From positions 1 to 64,000 of IMG/VR virus record IMGVR_UViG_3300047552_002060: a stretch of DNA of 64,000 nt; one strand, given 5' to 3'. The position numbers and the translations under genes are program-made. This stretch comes from a virus. Numbering within the stretch: the first letter of the stretch is position 1; each line of letters opens with the position of its first letter. Under the pieces are notes generated by a model. It did not search any database and had not been told where the DNA came from. It was given only the letters and a program-made list of their open reading frames with translations. Shown piece after piece: positions 1,527 to 38,303 of this stretch.

Positions 1527-1557
1527 CCCACTCTTGCTTACAAGTCCATATTGGCAA

Positions 1558-1677
1558 ATGCGGCGTTTCTTTTCAAGAAATAAATTATTCGAAGTAATGT
1601 TTGTATTGAAGTTAATCAGCTATACAACTTATTACAATCTGCATGACAATGATGGCCAGCGTCTTTTTCCCATGTAA
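1558..1677 (+). CDS. microprotein, 39 aa, LKL-core type
   Basis: Short basic and hydrophobic protein with the core LFEVMFVLKLIS, like those in a set of tiny proteins scattered through the window (see findings). There is no clear ribosome binding site, so the call rests on the shared core and on the otherwise empty space. Confidence 0.4.
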   Translation: MRRFFSRNKLFEVMFVLKLISYTTYYNLHDNDGQRLFPM

Positions 1678-2599: not shown

Positions 2600-2707
2600 G
2601 GGCGGGACAGGCTAGTCCAACCATAAAGGAATAGGCGTATGGCACCGAAAGGTGACCGACCGAAACGGAGTGGGTTCGTAGGCTGGGTTCGACTCTCGGG
2701 CCGCCCA
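2600..2707 (+). ncRNA. tRNA-like structured RNA of about 108 nt
   Basis: GGGCGG at 2600 pairs with CCGCCC ending at 2706 to close the element. The 3' part looks like a tRNA half: T-arm CTGGG-TTCGACT-CTCGG (two wobbles), then a 7-base acceptor strand and A. The middle holds a CACC-GAAA-GGTG tetraloop hairpin and no ordinary anticodon arm, and the length is about 30 nt above a normal tRNA. It shares an AAGGAATA-GGC-TA core with the RNA at 5332. It could be a decayed or interrupted tRNA or a separate RNA class. Confidence 0.4.
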
Positions 2708-3954: not shown

Positions 3955-3961
3955 GCTGTTC

Positions 3962-4036
3962 GGCAAAAGGTCTGCTAGCGACCACGGTAAAGGATCAGCC
4001 ATCTGATCTAAAGAGGTTCGAATCCTCACTTTGCCA
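3962..4036 (+). tRNA. tRNA-like gene, non-canonical (anticodon unclear, CAT or CCA)
   Basis: 75 nt. GGCAAA pairs with TTTGCC plus discriminator A (6 bp and one mismatch). There is a T-arm GAGG-TTCGAAT-CCTC (4 bp) and a D-like hairpin GGTC-TGCTAGC-GACC. The anticodon stem GATCA/TGATC encloses a 6-base loop, or GGATC/GATCT an 8-base one, rather than 7, so the anticodon cannot be set with confidence. It may be a degenerate tRNA. Confidence 0.4.
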
Positions 4037-4327: not shown

Positions 4328-4361
4328 CTTGGTAGAATGGTTCCATAATTAAGGAATTAAT

Positions 4362-4772: not shown

Positions 4773-5024
4773 ATGAGTGAAGACTTAATCTACAGACTAA
4801 AGAAACGAGCAGAGATTCGTAGGCAGATCTCCACTCGTAAGAGTGTCCAAGAAGGGAAGCCTGATCGTATTGCTGATTTGTTAGAAGAAGCAGCGAATGC
4901 TCTTAGTTTTTTAGCAGAACTGGCTGAAGAAGACTGTAGCTATGGAGATAATTGTCCAACTTTTGGAAGTAGACATGGTAAGTGTATATACTGTAAGGCA
5001 AGACAAGCGTTAAAGAAAACATAA
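4773..5024 (+). CDS. hypothetical protein with C-terminal Cys cluster
   Basis: 83 aa. A helical N-terminus with DRIADLLEEAANAL, a segment often seen in small phage proteins, is followed by four or more Cys (EDCSYGDNCPTF, GKCIYCKA) that could bind zinc. It is the last ORF before the RNA block at 5040-5438. Confidence 0.65.
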   Translation: MSEDLIYRLKKRAEIRRQISTRKSVQEGKPDRIADLLEEAANALSFLAELAEEDCSYGDNCPTFGSRHGKCIYCKARQALKKT

Positions 5025-5039
5025 AAATAACGAGCCTTG

Positions 5040-5240
5040 CCCGATCACCACGGGCTAGTGTGACACGCACGAAATGAAGCCGGATAGTTACCGGAGTGTG
5101 GTTGGGGTCTTACCGAACCCTGGGCTGGCAACGCCCCAAGTACCGTAAGTACTGTTCTACTGTGAAAAGGTGACAGAGGTATACTGAAAGTCAGGTATGA
5201 AACCATGAGGCTGATACCCGGGTTCACCATGTGAACACCG
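5040..5240 (+). ncRNA. structured non-coding RNA candidate upstream of tRNA-Ala
   Basis: No convincing ORF, GC-richer than its flanks, and it folds into a chain of local hairpins: GCCCG-ATCACCA-CGGGC, CCGG-ATAGTTA-CCGG enclosed by CGCAC/GTGTG, GGTT..AACC, GGGC-TGGCAAC-GCCC, AGTAC-CGTAA-GTACT, ATACTGA-AAG-TCA(G)GTAT and GTTCAC-CAT-GTGAAC. I found no RNase P, tmRNA or group I intron core signatures. It ends about 15 bases before tRNA-Ala and may be co-transcribed with it. Class unknown. Confidence 0.55.
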
Positions 5241-5256
5241 ACTACCTGAAGCAGAT

Positions 5257-5329
5257 GGGGTTTTAGCTCAGCTGGGAGAGCGTCGGATTTGCATTCCGAA
5301 GGTCAAGGGTTCGATCCCCTTAAACTCCA
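5257..5329 (+). tRNA. tRNA-Ala(UGC)
   Basis: 73 nt with complete cloverleaf: acceptor GGGGTTT/AAACTCC (one G-U), D-arm GCTC..GAGC, anticodon stem TCGGA/TCCGA with loop TTTGCAT giving UGC, T-arm with TTCGATC, discriminator A. CCA is not fully encoded. Confidence 0.93.
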
Positions 5330-5331
5330 AT

Positions 5332-5438
5332 TGAATGGTAGCTTATGGCGTAGAAGGAATAAGGCATACGCGAGTCGTAAAAGCACCGGTCTCCTTATGC
5401 CCGGGAGAATCTGATGCGGACCTCAGACCATTCGACCA
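5332..5438 (+). ncRNA. tRNA-like structured RNA of about 107 nt
   Basis: GAATGGT (5333-5339) pairs perfectly with ACCATTC (5427-5433), and an ACCA-like end follows. Inside are GGCAT/ATGCC and TCTGA/TCAGA stems, but the T-loop consensus is missing, so it is not an ordinary tRNA. The AAGGAATAAGGCATA core matches the RNA at 2600. Located directly between tRNA-Ala and a small ORF. Confidence 0.4.
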
Positions 5439-5819: not shown

Positions 5820-5905
5820 GCTCTTGTCGCATAGTTGGTCGAGTGCACCAGTTTTGTAAACTGGATCCCTAAAGGACATCGTGAGTTCGAATCTCACCGA
5901 GAGCT
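5820..5905 (+). tRNA. class II tRNA with UGU (Thr) anticodon
   Basis: 86 nt. Acceptor GCTCTTG/CGAGAGC, anticodon stem CCAGT/ACTGG with loop TTTGTAA (UGU), T-arm GTGAG-TTCGAAT-CTCAC, discriminator U. Between the anticodon and T arms is a 16-base variable arm with a TCC/GGA stem, a class II feature normal for Leu, Ser and Tyr but not Thr. G1-C72, C2-G71 and G35-U36 fit bacterial threonine identity, so Thr is the best guess. Confidence 0.85.
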
Positions 5906-12554: not shown

Positions 12555-15017
12555 TTATCCACATTTAGAATAACCGCAATCTAAACAAGATACACATCCT
12601 TGTTGATAACTTAGATTATTAGAAGAGCACTGTGTGCAAACTTTTTCAGTTGTTTTTGTACCATCTGCGATATACGATTTACTAAGTACACGAGCAACTA
12701 CCGTAGAGAAAGAAAACATATCTGAATATTTATCTTTACGTAATTGTTCTACAATATATTGAATCGGCACTCCATGACGAAGTGAAGTAGACAGTGTTCG
12801 ACTTAATGAACCATAGAGTGGATTATCAAAAAGATCCACCACATTTTCAAACGTTTCTTCATCATTCAATATGAGGTTATAAGTGGAAGGTCCGGTCTTA
12901 TTTGAATGCTTAACAAGTTTTCCATGTTTTTCTTTCTTTCCAACTTCAATGTTTGCTGCTAATCCACAAAAAATCTCATATGGTTTTCCATGAAGCAAAC
13001 CAACAAGAATAACGTATTCTTCACCTTTAACTTTAGCTCTATGAATGTCACAAGGTAGAGATTTAGGTCGCTTAGGAGCATGCGTTTCTTGAATAGCTTC
13101 AATAGTGCCTGAACTTGTAGGTTTCTCAATTAGAACTCCTGATCTACTCTTATCGCGATAAATAGTAATTCCCTTACATCCATCCTTCCAACCCTTCATA
13201 TAAATATCTTTTACAGTATCAACAGTTGTATCTGAAGGAACATTGGTCGTATTGGAAATACTATGATCAACCCATCGCTGAGCAGCAGCTTGCATTTCTA
13301 CCTTTTTTAACCAATTGATATCATTAGCAGTGGATCCATAATAAGGACTGTCTTTTATATCAGACTTTGGATCTTTTCCATTAATACGAGCCCATTCTAA
13401 ATGACCATGATGAAAGACTTCAAATTCAGTCCACTTATCGCCTTGAGCATCAACGAAATCAGCTCTATCTGAAGCATTCATGTTTTTCTTGCGACGAGTG
13501 TAATTAAGACGAAACGCCGGCTCACATCCTGATGTTGTCTGACACATAATCGACATAGAACCAGCAGGAGCAATAGTGAGATTCGCTATATTACGTCTTC
13601 CAAACGATTTATACATTTTTTGAATTTCTAAAGGACACTCAGCAAGTACTTTAGAAACAAACGGATGATCCTTCTCTTTTGATAAGGAGAAGACGTTGAA
13701 AGCACCACGTTCTTTTGCCATAATAACAGAAGAAGTGTATGACTGAATTGCGAGTACTTTATGGATTTTCTCAGTCATGAGAATGCTTTCTTCACTGCCG
13801 TAACTCATGCCTAAGGCAGCTAAAGTATCGCCTAGACCTGTTTCGCCTAGACCGGTTCTTCTTCCATTGCTAGTAGTTTTAAGAATATTTTTCCATAAAT
13901 TAAGTTCAATTGCTTTTACTTCGTCTCGCTCAGGATCTTGCTCAATCTTATTGATGATCTTGTGAATCATTTCTAATTCAAGGTCGATCATGTCGTCCAT
14001 AAGACGTTGAGCTGTAATAGTAGTTGCCTTAAACTTTTCAAAATCAAAATAAGCTGTTGATGTGTATGGATTTACCACAAATTTAAAGAGATTTTGAAGA
14101 AGTAAACGGCACGAATCTAAAGGACATAGGGGCAATTCACCACAAGGATTGGTACTGGAAGTTCGATATCCAACATCTGCGTAGCAATCCGCTGGAGAAT
14201 TAGTAATAATTGTATCCCAAAACAATACTCCAGGTTCAGCGCTTTCCCAAGCGGCAAGCATCATTTGGTCCCAAACCGCTTTTGCTTTTACTTCTCTTAC
14301 AATTGAAGGAGTTGCGGAGTCTATGGGCCACTGTTGGGTATACGTAGTGTCGTCACAAACTGCTCGCATGAAAGCATTAGAGACCCTTATAGAAACATTC
14401 GCCCCGGTAACTCGAGTCTTATCTCGCTTAATATTAATAAATGTTTCAACTTCAGGATGGTGGACAGAAATGCTCAACATTAAAGCTCCGCGTCGACCAT
14501 TTTGAGCCACCTCACGAGTGGTATTTGAGAAACGATCCATAAAAACAGCAATACCATCTGTGGTTTTAGCCGCATTTGACGTAGAAACACCCTTTGGACG
14601 AATATTTGAGATATCATGACCTACGCCGCCTCGCCGTTTCATGATTTGAGCTTGTTCTTGATCGGCTCTAAAGATACCACCATAAGAATCTTGCGCCGGT
14701 TCGATAACAAAGCAATTACTAATACTTTGAAGTTGAAAAGGATTTCCGATACCAGACATCGGACTACCTTGCGGAATAATAGTCCAATCTTGAAACAAAT
14801 TAAAAATAGTTTCTTCAGAAAGCGGATTGGGGTATTTACTTTCAATTCTAGCGAATTCTTTTGCTAGTCGTCGATGTGTATCTACAGGTGTTGATTCATA
14901 GAAGATTTCATTGTTTTGAAGAGCATATTTATCAGTAAAAGTATTTGCCGCTAATTCATCTTGTTTGAAGTAAATCAATGAGGCATTTAAAACTTCTTGA
15001 CGCGTAAATTCAATCAT
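12555..15017 (-). CDS. nrdJ: ribonucleotide reductase, class II (B12-dependent)
   Basis: 820 aa. Reduces ribonucleotides to deoxyribonucleotides for phage DNA synthesis. Visible: Cys102 in SISNCFVIEP, RRGGVGHDISNIRP, NGRRGAL, and the active-site NPCGE at 290-294 (Asn290, Cys292, Glu294). The C-terminus ends in a CTQCSSNN ... CLDCGYSKCG zinc/redox tail typical of NrdJ. One large chain without a small-subunit partner nearby and without an N-terminal ATP cone supports class II, which needs adenosylcobalamin from the host. Confidence 0.93.
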   Translation of the reverse strand: MIEFTRQEVLNASLIYFKQDELAANTFTDKYALQNNEIFYESTPVDTHRRLAKEFARIESKYPNPLSEETIFNLFQDWTIIPQGSPMSGIGNPFQLQSISNCFVIEPAQDSYGGIFRADQEQAQIMKRRGGVGHDISNIRPKGVSTSNAAKTTDGIAVFMDRFSNTTREVAQNGRRGALMLSISVHHPEVETFINIKRDKTRVTGANVSIRVSNAFMRAVCDDTTYTQQWPIDSATPSIVREVKAKAVWDQMMLAAWESAEPGVLFWDTIITNSPADCYADVGYRTSSTNPCGELPLCPLDSCRLLLQNLFKFVVNPYTSTAYFDFEKFKATTITAQRLMDDMIDLELEMIHKIINKIEQDPERDEVKAIELNLWKNILKTTSNGRRTGLGETGLGDTLAALGMSYGSEESILMTEKIHKVLAIQSYTSSVIMAKERGAFNVFSLSKEKDHPFVSKVLAECPLEIQKMYKSFGRRNIANLTIAPAGSMSIMCQTTSGCEPAFRLNYTRRKKNMNASDRADFVDAQGDKWTEFEVFHHGHLEWARINGKDPKSDIKDSPYYGSTANDINWLKKVEMQAAAQRWVDHSISNTTNVPSDTTVDTVKDIYMKGWKDGCKGITIYRDKSRSGVLIEKPTSSGTIEAIQETHAPKRPKSLPCDIHRAKVKGEEYVILVGLLHGKPYEIFCGLAANIEVGKKEKHGKLVKHSNKTGPSTYNLILNDEETFENVVDLFDNPLYGSLSRTLSTSLRHGVPIQYIVEQLRKDKYSDMFSFSTVVARVLSKSYIADGTKTTEKVCTQCSSNNLSYQQGCVSCLDCGYSKCG

Positions 15018-25039: not shown

Positions 25040-25046
25040 GTCGATC

Positions 25047-25124
25047 GAGTAGAGCTGGATATCCGGAAACGCCTAGAAGCACACTAGGACCCTCTAGCGA
25101 GAGTTCGATTCTCTCGTCTACTCT
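25047..25124 (+). tRNA. tRNA-Cys(GCA)
   Basis: Acceptor GAGTAGA/TCTACTC (perfect 7 bp), anticodon stem CCTAG/CTAGG with loop AAGCACA giving GCA, T-arm GAGAG-TTCGATT-CTCTC, discriminator U as expected for Cys. The variable region is long (about 10 nt) and one extra G separates T-arm and acceptor, so the structure is slightly irregular. Confidence 0.85.
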
Positions 25125-29771: not shown

Positions 29772-31456
29772 GTAGGATTTACCTTAGACACTAAGATTCC
29801 ATCGACGAATGTTAATGATCCAGCAGCTCCAGGAGTGGTTAGTTTGGCGAGAGAAGCAGTGTCATTATTATTTGTTGTTGGAAACACACCGGGAATGTTA
29901 AGTGCAACCATGGCAGCAGCAGCCAAATCTTTGAATATGAGCTTCAATTGACTCTGCTGCAGTGGTAGCAGAGTATTGTAATCTTGTAGTGGAGCTATCA
30001 GATCAGGGTCGACTCCTCCTTGGACTCCGTATAGGTAAGCCAATTGTAGTGCTTCGTCAAGATTCATAAATGTATTGGCTTGACGCTGAGTAACAGACAA
30101 TGGATCAACAATGGGCGTCGAACTTGTTATGGTTGGAGTTCCAATGTTGATTATTTGCTCTATGCCTGTTGCAACAATTTGATTGCTTATTGCAGGTACA
30201 CCCAGCTCTATAGATTGTTCGCTGCCCACTCCAACAACATTTGAAACTATCCCGGTTATTGGGGTGCCGATTAGAATATCTTGTTGGATGCCAGCTTCAA
30301 CAGCGAATATTGAAGTATTGTTAGTGGGTACACCGACAGAGATATCTTGCTGAATGCCTATTGCAGTATGTGATGTTATTGAACTGACAAGTGACAATCC
30401 TGTGTCAATCGTCTGATCAATGCCTATACCAATCGCGGGTATATAAACAGCTGCTATTGGAGTTCCAATAGTGATGTCTTGTTGAATACCAACACTCAAA
30501 AATTCTCGATCTAGAGCACGCACTGCAGATGGCGTACCGACGTTGATAACTTGTCCAAAACCACTTCCAATTACTGAAGCCGGTCCAGCAACCACCGGCG
30601 CTCCTACACTGATAGGCTCCAAGATTCCTACGCCAATAGTCGTGAGTGGATTAATATCAGCAGTAGGTGTACCGACAGCTATAGTCTGTGCGATACCTAC
30701 GCCCTGAGGTTCCTGTTGTTGAATAATTGCAGGTGTACCAATACTGATATTTTGTGCGACACCGACAGCTATAGTAGAAGCAAACAATCCAGAGGCTGGA
30801 TCACCGACAGTAATAGTTTGATCAACACCTATGCTCGTTGAGGAGAGAGAAGTTGATGTGACTGGCGTTCCGATATCTATTGTTTGATCAATACCAACAG
30901 ATTGAGCATCACCCTGCGACTGCATAGATGGAGTTCCAACAACGATATCTTGTTGGATACCAACGTTTACACATGCAATTTGAGCAGGTTGAATAACGTC
31001 AACGACTAATCCTGGCCAATTGTAGGTTCCACTGCGCGGAATTACCCAAGAACTTCCAGTAAAGACAGCATTATTCCTGATGCTAAGAGTGTAAGTATTT
31101 GTGCTGATTAATGGCCCAGAAAGCGCCAAAAGAATACTTCTTGCTCCAGCATTCCAAGTTACACTATTAATCGTCGGCGGAGTAGGTCCAGAGAGAGAGT
31201 AATCTGAGACAGTAGTGCTTACTGATTGCAGTGGAGCGGTGAATTGTATAGTAATAGTATTTACAGCTGATTCACCATAGTGCGCTGACCACAATGCTCC
31301 TTGCACGACTTCTCTATCACCGGTGATAGAAAATTGACCGCGTTTGCCCGAATTTCCATTGAAGTTTGGAGCAACATCAAAAGCCGAAGAAACTCTTTTC
31401 CAAGTATCTTGCTCCGTACTTGGCAATGCAAAATCATTGGATGCATAGGCAGTCAT
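29768..31456 (-). CDS. repeat-containing tail/fibre protein
   Basis: 562 aa. Residues 1-160 share the start NDFALPSTEQDTW with the next upstream gene and look like a beta-sandwich. Residues 164-441 carry 13 copies of a 21-24-residue unit around VGIQQDIxIGTP. The last 110 residues (FKDLAAAAMVALNIPG ... SLTFVDGILVSK) match the end of the 33487-33825 protein. Likely a trimeric fibre or spike with length set by the repeats. Confidence 0.75.
   Translation of the reverse strand: MTAYASNDFALPSTEQDTWKRVSSAFDVAPNFNGNSGKRGQFSITGDREVVQGALWSAHYGESAVNTITIQFTAPLQSVSTTVSDYSLSGPTPPTINSVTWNAGARSILLALSGPLISTNTYTLSIRNNAVFTGSSWVIPRSGTYNWPGLVVDVIQPAQIACVNVGIQQDIVVGTPSMQSQGDAQSVGIDQTIDIGTPVTSTSLSSTSIGVDQTITVGDPASGLFASTIAVGVAQNISIGTPAIIQQQEPQGVGIAQTIAVGTPTADINPLTTIGVGILEPISVGAPVVAGPASVIGSGFGQVINVGTPSAVRALDREFLSVGIQQDITIGTPIAAVYIPAIGIGIDQTIDTGLSLVSSITSHTAIGIQQDISVGVPTNNTSIFAVEAGIQQDILIGTPITGIVSNVVGVGSEQSIELGVPAISNQIVATGIEQIINIGTPTITSSTPIVDPLSVTQRQANTFMNLDEALQLAYLYGVQGGVDPDLIAPLQDYNTLLPLQQSQLKLIFKDLAAAAMVALNIPGVFPTTNNNDTASLAKLTTPGAAGSLTFVDGILVSKVNPT
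30134..30967 (-). repeat. 13 tandem protein repeats within the fibre gene
   Basis: Units such as VGIQQDIVVGTP, VGIDQTIDIGTP, VGIAQTIAVGTP and AGIQQDILIGTP recur every 21-24 codons. They are diverged at DNA level, so this is an old repeat. A single unit (VTETVDIGTP) also ends the neighbouring 31456-31920 protein. Confidence 0.85.
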
Positions 31457-35637: not shown

Positions 35638-35714
35638 TTGACTTGGTTCTATCTTAAGAATAGAGAGAGCAGCTAAAGAGCTGCTAAGTTCTGGTTCAAG
35701 TCCAGAGAGTCGAG
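35638..35714 (+). tRNA. tRNA-like gene, non-canonical (possible Phe AAA)
   Basis: TTGACTT/GAGTCGA closes a 7-bp acceptor (two wobbles); T-arm TCTGG-TTCAAGT-CCAGA is perfect; D-like hairpin TCTAT/ATAGA. The anticodon stem AGCAGC/GCTGCT leaves a 6-base loop TAAAGA, so U33-AAA would be the reading. D-arm and loop are not canonical. Confidence 0.45.
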
Positions 35715-35781
35715 TCAGTTCAATCACAGACGAATGGGTGACACAGAGTTGCACCCTACGGTGGGTCTTAATGGAGCATAT

Positions 35782-36899: not shown

Positions 36900-38303
36900 A
36901 TGTCATCTAGACTTCGCAGCAAGTTGGAAAAAGACCTCTTGGACAAGGAATTTGTCTCGGTTGAAGTTAAGTCACAGTGTTTGTCAACTGTGATTTACGA
37001 GTGTTGTACTAAGACACACCAGTTCATGGGTGCCGTTCTTCAGAGTCTTACTATCAATTACTCTCATCAACTTCCAACTGCTGGTATTTTGTTCAATACC
37101 GATGCTAAGCACTGGGAGATGCTGATTAATCCGTATTTCTTCTGTAAGAAGCTCAATGCTGAGCAGCGCAAGGCCGTGCTGCTTCATGAGCTTAGTCACA
37201 TTCTTCATAAGCACCCATTGCGAGTACCTTTTCTGAAGATTTCGCCACGCAAGCGAGTATTGATGAATATTGCTGCCGACATGGCGATTAACCAGTTCAT
37301 CAAGAATATCCCCGATGGCTGTCCACAATGTACACCATATGACCCCGACCATCCAACTCCATGCCCCAATGAGATGTGTCCCGGTCGCGGCATCTTCCTG
37401 CGTGACTTCTACGACATCGATGACAAGACAAAGGCTCGTATTCCATGGAAGGCCAATCAGACCATGGAGCATTATTACGAGAAGCTTCTGACTCGCTTCG
37501 AAGATCCTGACGATGGCGACGGAGATGGCGATGGCAATGCCGGTGGTGGAGCGTCAACGGGCGACCTACCCCAGACCATCGATGAGCATCTTTGGGATAA
37601 TGGCGCCGTTGAAGAAAAGGACATGCTGGACGCTACTGAGGAATTGGCCAAGCGTGCGATGGTAAAGGCTCGTCTTGATTACGATTCTCTTCCTGGCTCA
37701 GTGAAGGAACTTCTCGAGGATATCAAGGCACGGCGCGCCGAACTTAACTATAAGCAGCTCATTATGTCGGCTATGAAGCGTCACGCCAGCGGCCACGATC
37801 GCAATCATACGTGGACTCGTCCCTCTAAGCGATACGGCAATAAGGCTCGTGGAACGAAGGTAGGTGAGCTGCCGAAGCTCGACATCTATCTCGATTCCTC
37901 AGGAAGTATCAGCATCGAAGAGCTGAATGGCTTCTTAGAAGTTGTAGACCAGTTCCTTCGGGTTGGATCTCGTAAGTGTAATCTGAGTTTCTTCCATACA
38001 GCTCTCTACAAGACCGATAAATACAAGATGGGGACTAAGATTGCCCGAGAAGACATTCAGAGTGGAGGCACCGATCTCACTCCCGTATTGGCCAATATTC
38101 TCAAGAATAAAGCGGATATGGCGATCATCGTGACCGATGGTTGTTATGGGGATGTTCCGGCCGAACAGTGGATGAAGCCTGGCGAGAAGTTTCCACAAAC
38201 ATTGTTCGTCATCTCTAAAGACGGCACGGCGGATCATCCGTTGAAGCGTTTCGGGTCTGAGACGGTCAAGATTCCTGATAGCGCTACGTTTAAGAAGCAA
38301 TAA
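36900..38303 (+). CDS. metallopeptidase-like protein with VWA domain (DUF2201 type)
   Basis: 467 aa. Zinc peptidase motif HELSH at 96-100, then a Cys cluster (CPQCTPYDPDHPTPCPNEMC) near 142-160, an acidic Gly-rich linker, and a C-terminal VWA-like domain with MIDAS DSSGS (YLDSSGSIS near 330) and IIVTDGCYGD. The layout matches DUF2201 partners of MoxR ATPases. Together with 34461 it may form a phage chaperone/peptidase complex acting on host or phage proteins. Confidence 0.85.
   Translation: MSSRLRSKLEKDLLDKEFVSVEVKSQCLSTVIYECCTKTHQFMGAVLQSLTINYSHQLPTAGILFNTDAKHWEMLINPYFFCKKLNAEQRKAVLLHELSHILHKHPLRVPFLKISPRKRVLMNIAADMAINQFIKNIPDGCPQCTPYDPDHPTPCPNEMCPGRGIFLRDFYDIDDKTKARIPWKANQTMEHYYEKLLTRFEDPDDGDGDGDGNAGGGASTGDLPQTIDEHLWDNGAVEEKDMLDATEELAKRAMVKARLDYDSLPGSVKELLEDIKARRAELNYKQLIMSAMKRHASGHDRNHTWTRPSKRYGNKARGTKVGELPKLDIYLDSSGSISIEELNGFLEVVDQFLRVGSRKCNLSFFHTALYKTDKYKMGTKIAREDIQSGGTDLTPVLANILKNKADMAIIVTDGCYGDVPAEQWMKPGEKFPQTLFVISKDGTADHPLKRFGSETVKIPDSATFKKQ

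What the first reader, a model, noticed from the sequence alone, without database searches (positions are those of the whole stretch)
5040..5240. Compact multi-hairpin RNA of about 200 nt next to tRNA-Ala, class unknown
The stretch lacks a credible ORF, is GC-richer than its flanks, and shows at least seven local hairpins, several perfect. It ends about 15 bases before tRNA-Ala. Large phages often hold ornate RNAs (such as GOLLD or ROOL) near tRNA clusters, but those are far longer, and no tmRNA, RNase P or group I core motif was seen.
Basis: partly seen in the sequence, partly recalled or inferred. Interest (0 to 1): 0.65.

Follow-up and report, generated by a model that had tools for sequence, protein, structure and literature searches.

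The report
Hairpin-rich noncoding spacer before phage tRNA-Ala
A 231-base stretch that codes for no protein, just in front of a tRNA gene in a large virus of Bacteroidota bacteria, contains more small hairpins than chance predicts, but it folds no more stably than shuffled sequence, is absent from the virus's closest known relative and has no found relatives, so it is probably a tRNA leader or spacer and not yet a demonstrated new RNA.

Summary
Bases 5025-5255 are ORF-free on the coding strand, GC-rich (52.6% against 42.8% genome-wide) and hold eight perfect hairpins of at least 4 bp (shuffle P about 0.001; top 0.5% of genome windows). Yet the whole region folds no better than its shuffles (z -0.97). 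Only the 3' domain, 5184-5254, is mildly unusual (z about -2.2). Rfam finds nothing. No homologue was found by BLAST, IMG/VR scans, or structure-aware models run on 53 phage records. Similar ORF-free stretches precede 43 of 180 tRNA calls in related phages, and most fold better than this one. The resemblance to T4 RNAD comes down to one hairpin of tRNA T-arm type, and chance matches score as high. Most likely this is a co-transcribed, lineage-specific leader/spacer cut off by RNase P, perhaps partly built from decayed tRNA arms. A stable RNA like T4's RNAC/RNAD, of unknown function, is not excluded. By-product: this phage pair carries several non-canonical tRNA-like elements missed by ARAGORN and Rfam.

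The parts
5025..5255 (+). ORF-free, GC-rich, hairpin-rich segment between ORF 4773-5024 and tRNA-Ala (the finding, with corrected boundaries)
   Evidence: RNA function not shown
5039..5055 (+). hairpin 1, 5 bp / 7-nt loop (GCCCG-AUCACCA-CGGGC)
   Evidence: centroid structure
5058..5070 (+). hairpin 2, 5 bp with one G-U / 3-nt loop (GUGUG-ACA-CGCAC)
5080..5094 (+). hairpin 3, CCGG-AUAGUUA-CCGG preceded by GAAG; resembles a tRNA T-arm (19 of 20 nt match to genuine tRNA-Thr genes) and the 5' hairpin of T4 RNAD
   Evidence: resemblance at chance level by controls
5105..5120 (+). hairpin 4 (GGGU..ACCC; the predicted fold prefers an alternative pairing, GGUU.GG..CC.AACC, at about 5100-5119)
5122..5136 (+). 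hairpin 5 (GGGC-UGGCAAC-GCCC)
5139..5153 (+). hairpin 6, 5 bp / 5-nt loop (AGUAC-CGUAA-GUACU)
5160..5176 (+). hairpin 7 (CUGU-9 nt-ACAG)
5184..5254 (+). 3' domain closed by CUG/CAG and UCAGGUA(5191-5197)/UACCUGA(5243-5249), holding hairpin GUUCAC-CAU-GUGAAC (5222-5236); the only part with a mildly unusual fold
   Evidence: -20.4 kcal/mol, z -2.18, 8 of 200 shuffles as good
5178..5185 (+). GGTATACT, possible -10 box like the GGTATAAT boxes before tRNAs in related phages (weak)
   Evidence: 3 GGTATAMTNA matches in the window against 0.76 expected
4331..4338 (+). GGTAGAAT, promoter-like box before the DUF5675 gene, with a GGTATAAT counterpart in G001 (32850, minus strand); nearest such box upstream that could drive transcription through the region
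   Evidence: inference
5256..5330 (+). tRNA-Ala(TGC)
   Evidence: counterpart in G001
5332..5438 (+). possible non-canonical tRNA-like element after tRNA-Ala: UGAAUGG/CCAUUCG acceptor-like stem, 5-bp T-arm-like hairpin with 8-nt loop, then A-CCA
   Evidence: 0.55 such hits per shuffled genome; 4 in the real one, and the other three lie in predicted ORFs; fold energy ordinary (z -0.15)

Best explanation
The segment is a lineage-specific non-coding leader/spacer in front of tRNA-Ala. It is probably transcribed on the + strand, read through from the DUF5675 gene or from a weak promoter around 5178, and cut off when RNase P makes the 5' end of tRNA-Ala at 5256. Its short GC-rich hairpins could protect or present the precursor for processing, and some of them (the T-arm-like hairpin at 5080-5094) may be remains of decayed tRNA genes. 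Shown: no ORF on the coding strand, position, hairpin count, absence in the closest relative, frequency of such gaps in relatives. Inferred: transcription, RNase P cleavage, origin from tRNAs.
For: Position directly 5' of a good tRNA gene, with the neighbouring genes on the same strand. The extensively syntenic closest relative G001 keeps DUF5675, tRNA-Ala and tRNA-Thr in order but has a protein ORF in place of the segment, so the slot turns over. ORF-free gaps of 90 nt or more precede 43 of 180 tRNA calls in related phages, duplicates included, and the window's gap ranks 27th of 43 by fold z-score; several of these gaps visibly contain GGTATAAT-type boxes and hairpins. The same spot is otherwise home to tRNA-like pieces: a candidate at 5332-5438, and a T-arm-like hairpin at 5080-5094 matching genuine tRNA-Thr genes over 20 nt.
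Against: The 4-bp hairpin count is significantly high (P about 0.001) and GC is raised, more than a neutral spacer needs. The 3' domain folds moderately well (z -2.18). No acceptor stem supports a tRNA origin. No transcript data exist.
Confidence: 0.5

Rival explanations
1. A functional, stable small RNA made from the tRNA region, analogous to T4 RNAC and RNAD: cut out of the tRNA precursor and kept, acting in an unknown way (for example as a decoy or ligand of a host tRNA-handling factor).
For: Excess of perfect hairpins and raised GC; place beside a tRNA like T4 rnaC/rnaD next to tRNA-Arg, which are confirmed late transcripts of unknown role (PMC9697503, PMC3014915). A distant relative, G072, has an ORF-free multi-hairpin stretch of about 170-178 nt directly before tRNA-Tyr whose first 83 nt fold very well (z -4.0, 0 of 200); it was the best non-self match of the structure model R2 (E 0.49-0.98).
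Against: Whole-region fold energy ordinary. G072 similarity is at chance level (sequence P 0.31; descriptor 7 hits including 2 tRNAs against 3.3 in shuffles). RNAD core absent. Absent from G001. No homologue found.
Confidence: 0.25
2. A neutral remnant: debris of decayed genes or tRNAs without any RNA function; the hairpin excess is selection by the reader plus high GC.
For: Ordinary fold energy; excess not significant at stem >=5 bp; windows elsewhere in the genome, several inside predicted ORFs, reach the same hairpin density; lineage-specific.
Against: 4-bp hairpin count beyond dinucleotide shuffles, which control for composition.
Confidence: 0.17
3. A DNA-level or cis-acting control region: promoter or attenuator for tRNA-Ala and the genes after it.
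For: GGTATACT at 5178, like the GGTATAAT boxes before tRNAs in related phages.
Against: Weak box, barely above expectation; no terminator-like site on the + strand within the segment; explains only the last 80 bases.
Confidence: 0.08

Closest known systems
T4 RNAC and RNAD (rnaC/rnaD, species 1 and 2 RNA; AF158101)
   Same: Small non-coding stretch directly beside a phage tRNA gene, same strand, made of short hairpins; one hairpin with the pattern GAARCCGG-N7-CCGG shared with RNAD.
   Different: RNAD's conserved core (GTCGTCGGACTGA...CACAGCWGAAACGGCGCAC) is absent: the RNAD model matches only 49 nt at 15.1 bits, while other matches found by the same hairpin pattern, most of them in open frames, reach 18.1 bits. 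RNAC's tRNA-like T-arm and acceptor are absent. No expression evidence here.
Bacterial and phage tRNA precursors (5' leaders removed by RNase P)
   Same: Location directly upstream of tRNA-Ala in a same-strand gene array.
   Different: Longer and more hairpin-rich than a typical leader (own knowledge); transcription and cleavage not shown.
GOLLD, ROOL (large ornate phage-associated RNAs)
   Different: About 230 nt only; no Rfam match of any kind up to E=10 apart from tRNA and a chance hit.

Membership tests
T4 RNAD (species 2 RNA) | Lies directly beside a tRNA gene, same strand | tested here: met
T4 RNAD (species 2 RNA) | Conserved RNAD core, nearly invariant in 9 Tevenvirinae sequences | tested here: not met
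   only the 5' hairpin matches, and chance hits score as high
T4 RNAD (species 2 RNA) | Accumulates as a discrete stable transcript | not testable with these tools
   no transcriptome of this uncultured phage
tRNA / tRNA-like RNA | 7-bp acceptor stem stacked on a T-arm | tested here: not met
   RF00005 to E=10, ARAGORN and the acceptor/T-arm descriptor find none within 5028-5255
tmRNA | tRNA-like ends plus tag ORF | tested here: not met
Any Rfam 15 family, including GOLLD, ROOL, group I intron, RNase P and ribozymes | Covariance-model match | tested here: not met
Conserved structured RNA of a new class | Homologues with stems kept by paired changes | tested here: inconclusive
   no homologue found in the related records searched or by IMG/VR pattern scans, so covariation cannot be counted
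RNase P-processed tRNA leader | Co-transcription with tRNA-Ala and cleavage at 5256 | not testable with these tools
   needs RNA 5'-end mapping

The most novel reading that the evidence does not exclude
Phages of this Bacteroidota-infecting group carry a fast-evolving class of 150-230-nt hairpin-chain RNAs fused 5' of tRNA genes (window 5028-5255 before tRNA-Ala; G072 90337-90514 before tRNA-Tyr), released by tRNA processing and used for example as decoys against host defences that attack tRNAs; T4 RNAD would be a remote functional counterpart.
Probability: 0.07. Interest if true: 0.7.

Novelty: new member of a known kind. Interest (0 to 1): 0.22.

Why it matters
If it is only a leader or spacer, it matters little beyond annotation. 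If a stable RNA is released, it would be a further case of the long-unexplained T4-type tRNA-region RNAs, in a phage group where the question could be approached comparatively. More useful now is the side result: in this phage pair ARAGORN and Rfam miss several tRNA-like RNAs, one of them conserved with paired changes, so the tRNA-region repertoire of such phages is undercounted.

Tried and rejected
Homology by BLAST to phage records: only tRNA-Ala matches among the rows listed. Own contig: no second copy. Hits of 14-29 nt in relatives and in IMG/VR pattern scans: those inspected are coding or chance. tmRNA, group I intron, riboswitch, OMEGA RNA and similar: no Rfam support, no IscB/TnpB among the proteins examined (the 467-aa 'HNH' protein at 36900-38303 is a DUF2201 metallopeptidase/VWA protein). 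T4 RNAD homology: looked promising (E 0.49 in 321 kb, only non-self hit) but rejected as evidence because matches found by the same hairpin pattern (77 of 103 in an open frame) score up to 18.1 bits and the motif is a tRNA T-arm. G072 candidate: same context and three hairpins in the same order, but at chance level by sequence and descriptor and without relatives of its own. Alignment of ORF-free gaps before tRNA-Ala in four other relatives: unrelated to the window. Bacteroidota promoter motif TANNTTTG: not enriched and none in the segment. A first genome-wide fold scan timed out and was redone smaller. My own gene finder was crude and missed some known genes, so its gap list is not used as evidence; only its genome GC figure is cited.

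Full report
WHAT IS THERE. The window is part of an 84.8-kb IMG/VR contig from a large tailed phage with an SPO1-type major capsid protein. Capsid relatives were found in MAGs labelled Saprospiraceae, Cytophagales and Flavobacteriaceae, so the hosts are probably Bacteroidota (inference). Between the stop of ORF 4773-5024 and tRNA-Ala(TGC) at 5256-5330 lie 231 bases without a + strand ORF. The only ORF across it, 61 aa on the minus strand, has no match in phage records. GC is 52.6% against 42.8% for the contig.

IS IT MORE THAN CHANCE. Counting perfect hairpins with stems of at least 4 bp gives eight in 5040-5240 against 3.4 in dinucleotide shuffles (P about 0.001) and puts the stretch in the top 0.5% of the genome's windows. 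But the count rests on 4-bp stems: at 5 bp the excess is not significant. The minimum free energy of the whole is ordinary (z -0.97), the 5' 125 nt are at z +0.2, and 110-nt windows across the region sit between the 19th and 85th percentile of the genome. The one mildly unusual part is 5184-5254 (z -2.18), a domain closed by UCAGGUA/UACCUGA.

RELATIVES. The best relative, G001 (172.6 kb), is extensively syntenic with the window contig, though in part rearranged; its capsid protein is 92% identical. It keeps DUF5675, tRNA-Ala and tRNA-Thr in order, but the orthologous slot holds a 117-aa ORF instead of the segment. Sequence searches of 17, 50 and 11 related records found nothing credible. Three IMG/VR pattern scans with pieces of the segment and one with the shared hairpin motif gave coding or chance matches. 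Structure-aware models of the two halves (R2, R3) found only the window itself at a convincing score in 53 records (the next best, 18.3 bits with R3 in G035, was not followed up) and in up to 768 kb of fetched sequence.

TWO LEADS FOLLOWED AND WEIGHED. First, T4 encodes two small RNAs beside tRNA-Arg, RNAC and RNAD, late transcripts of unknown function (PMC9697503, PMC3014915). RNAD shares the pattern GAARCCGG-N7-CCGG with window 5076-5094. A covariance model of nine RNAD sequences picked exactly this place out of 321 kb, at E 0.49. The control removed the significance: other matches to the same hairpin pattern, of which 77 of 103 lie in an open frame, score up to 18.1 bits, more than the window's 15.1. 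The motif is that of a tRNA T-arm, and it occurs in genuine tRNA-Thr genes of other phages. Second, the best non-self match of R2 is an ORF-free, well-folded stretch directly before tRNA-Tyr in G072 (z -4.0 for its first 83 nt). Context and order of three hairpins agree, but E is 0.5-1, sequence similarity is at shuffle level, and a descriptor fitted to both finds 7 cases, two of them ordinary tRNAs, where shuffles give 3.3. I keep it as a lead only.

HOW COMMON ARE SUCH GAPS. Of 180 tRNA calls in the fetched related phage DNA, 43 (duplicates included) have at least 90 nt of ORF-free, tRNA-free sequence upstream, with fold z-scores down to -7.3; the window's ranks 27th. Several of these gaps visibly contain hairpins and GGTATAAT-type boxes. 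A weaker box, GGTATACT, lies at 5178 in the window, and a GGTAGAAT box stands before the DUF5675 gene at 4331, with a counterpart in G001.

MECHANISM. Most economical: the segment is a spacer/leader in a same-strand array, transcribed with tRNA-Ala and removed by RNase P at 5256; hairpins may aid processing or stability, and part of the material may be old tRNA arms. Transcription, cleavage and origin are inferred. A released stable RNA of T4 RNAC/RNAD type is the main rival.

BY-PRODUCT. The phage pair carries non-canonical tRNA-like elements. Window 25046-25124 and its G001 counterpart are 84% identical in aligned columns, with matched changes in the acceptor and T-arm. Others are at window 2600-2706, 3961-4036 and 5332-5438, and in G001 a 52-nt tRNA without anticodon arm and a 103-nt mini tmRNA-like RNA.

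VERDICT. The anatomy is real but modest. Function is unproven, and the closest relative lacks the segment. Low interest as it stands; a single end-mapped RNA-seq experiment would decide.

Noticed in passing
25046-25124 (+); G001 L107 about 13498-13603 (-): Non-canonical tRNA-like element missed by ARAGORN and Rfam: acceptor stem, T-arm with TTCGATT loop, and a 5-bp arm with loop AAGCAYA (no U33). Conserved in G001 with paired changes in the acceptor (AGTAGA/TCTACT to GATAGA/TCTATC) and T-arm.
   Followed up: partly
3961-4036 (+): Cloverleaf with acceptor, D-arm and T-arm, but a 7-bp arm with CCAU tetraloop in place of the anticodon arm (fold z -2.86); not called by ARAGORN.
   Followed up: partly
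2600-2706 (+): 107-nt tRNA-like element (GGGCGG/CCGCCC ends, T-arm-like CTGGGTTCGACTCTCGG) in the slot where G001 has tRNA-Arg(TCT).
   Followed up: partly
L109 2309-2360 (-) and 2542-2644 (-), phage G001: A 52-nt tRNA apparently lacking the anticodon arm, and a 103-nt mini tmRNA-like RNA (RF00023 at E 5e-9 but below the gathering score).
   Followed up: partly
5820-5905 (+); G001 31326-31411 (-): tRNA read as Thr(TGT) but with a long variable arm (class II), in both phages; charging identity unclear.
   Followed up: no
35642-35716 (+): tRNA called with a four-base anticodon (aaag); possible frameshift or degenerate tRNA.
   Followed up: no
4331, 29459, 32952, 75330 and 77446 of the contig: GGTATAAT/GGTAGAAT boxes, some followed by an ATG within about 6-15 bases, suggesting a phage promoter type and perhaps leaderless mRNAs.
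   Followed up: no
related phages, loci L361, L367, L374, L379: ARAGORN calls 'tRNA-Pyl', a name it gives to CTA-anticodon tRNAs; such tRNAs could suppress TAG codons in capsid relatives of this phage. The calls were not inspected.
   Followed up: no
L225 (T4) 1554-1672 (-): T4 RNAD has no Rfam match in this release; its nine aligned Tevenvirinae sequences keep a core with compensatory changes in the variable stem and a T-arm-like 5' hairpin.
   Followed up: partly
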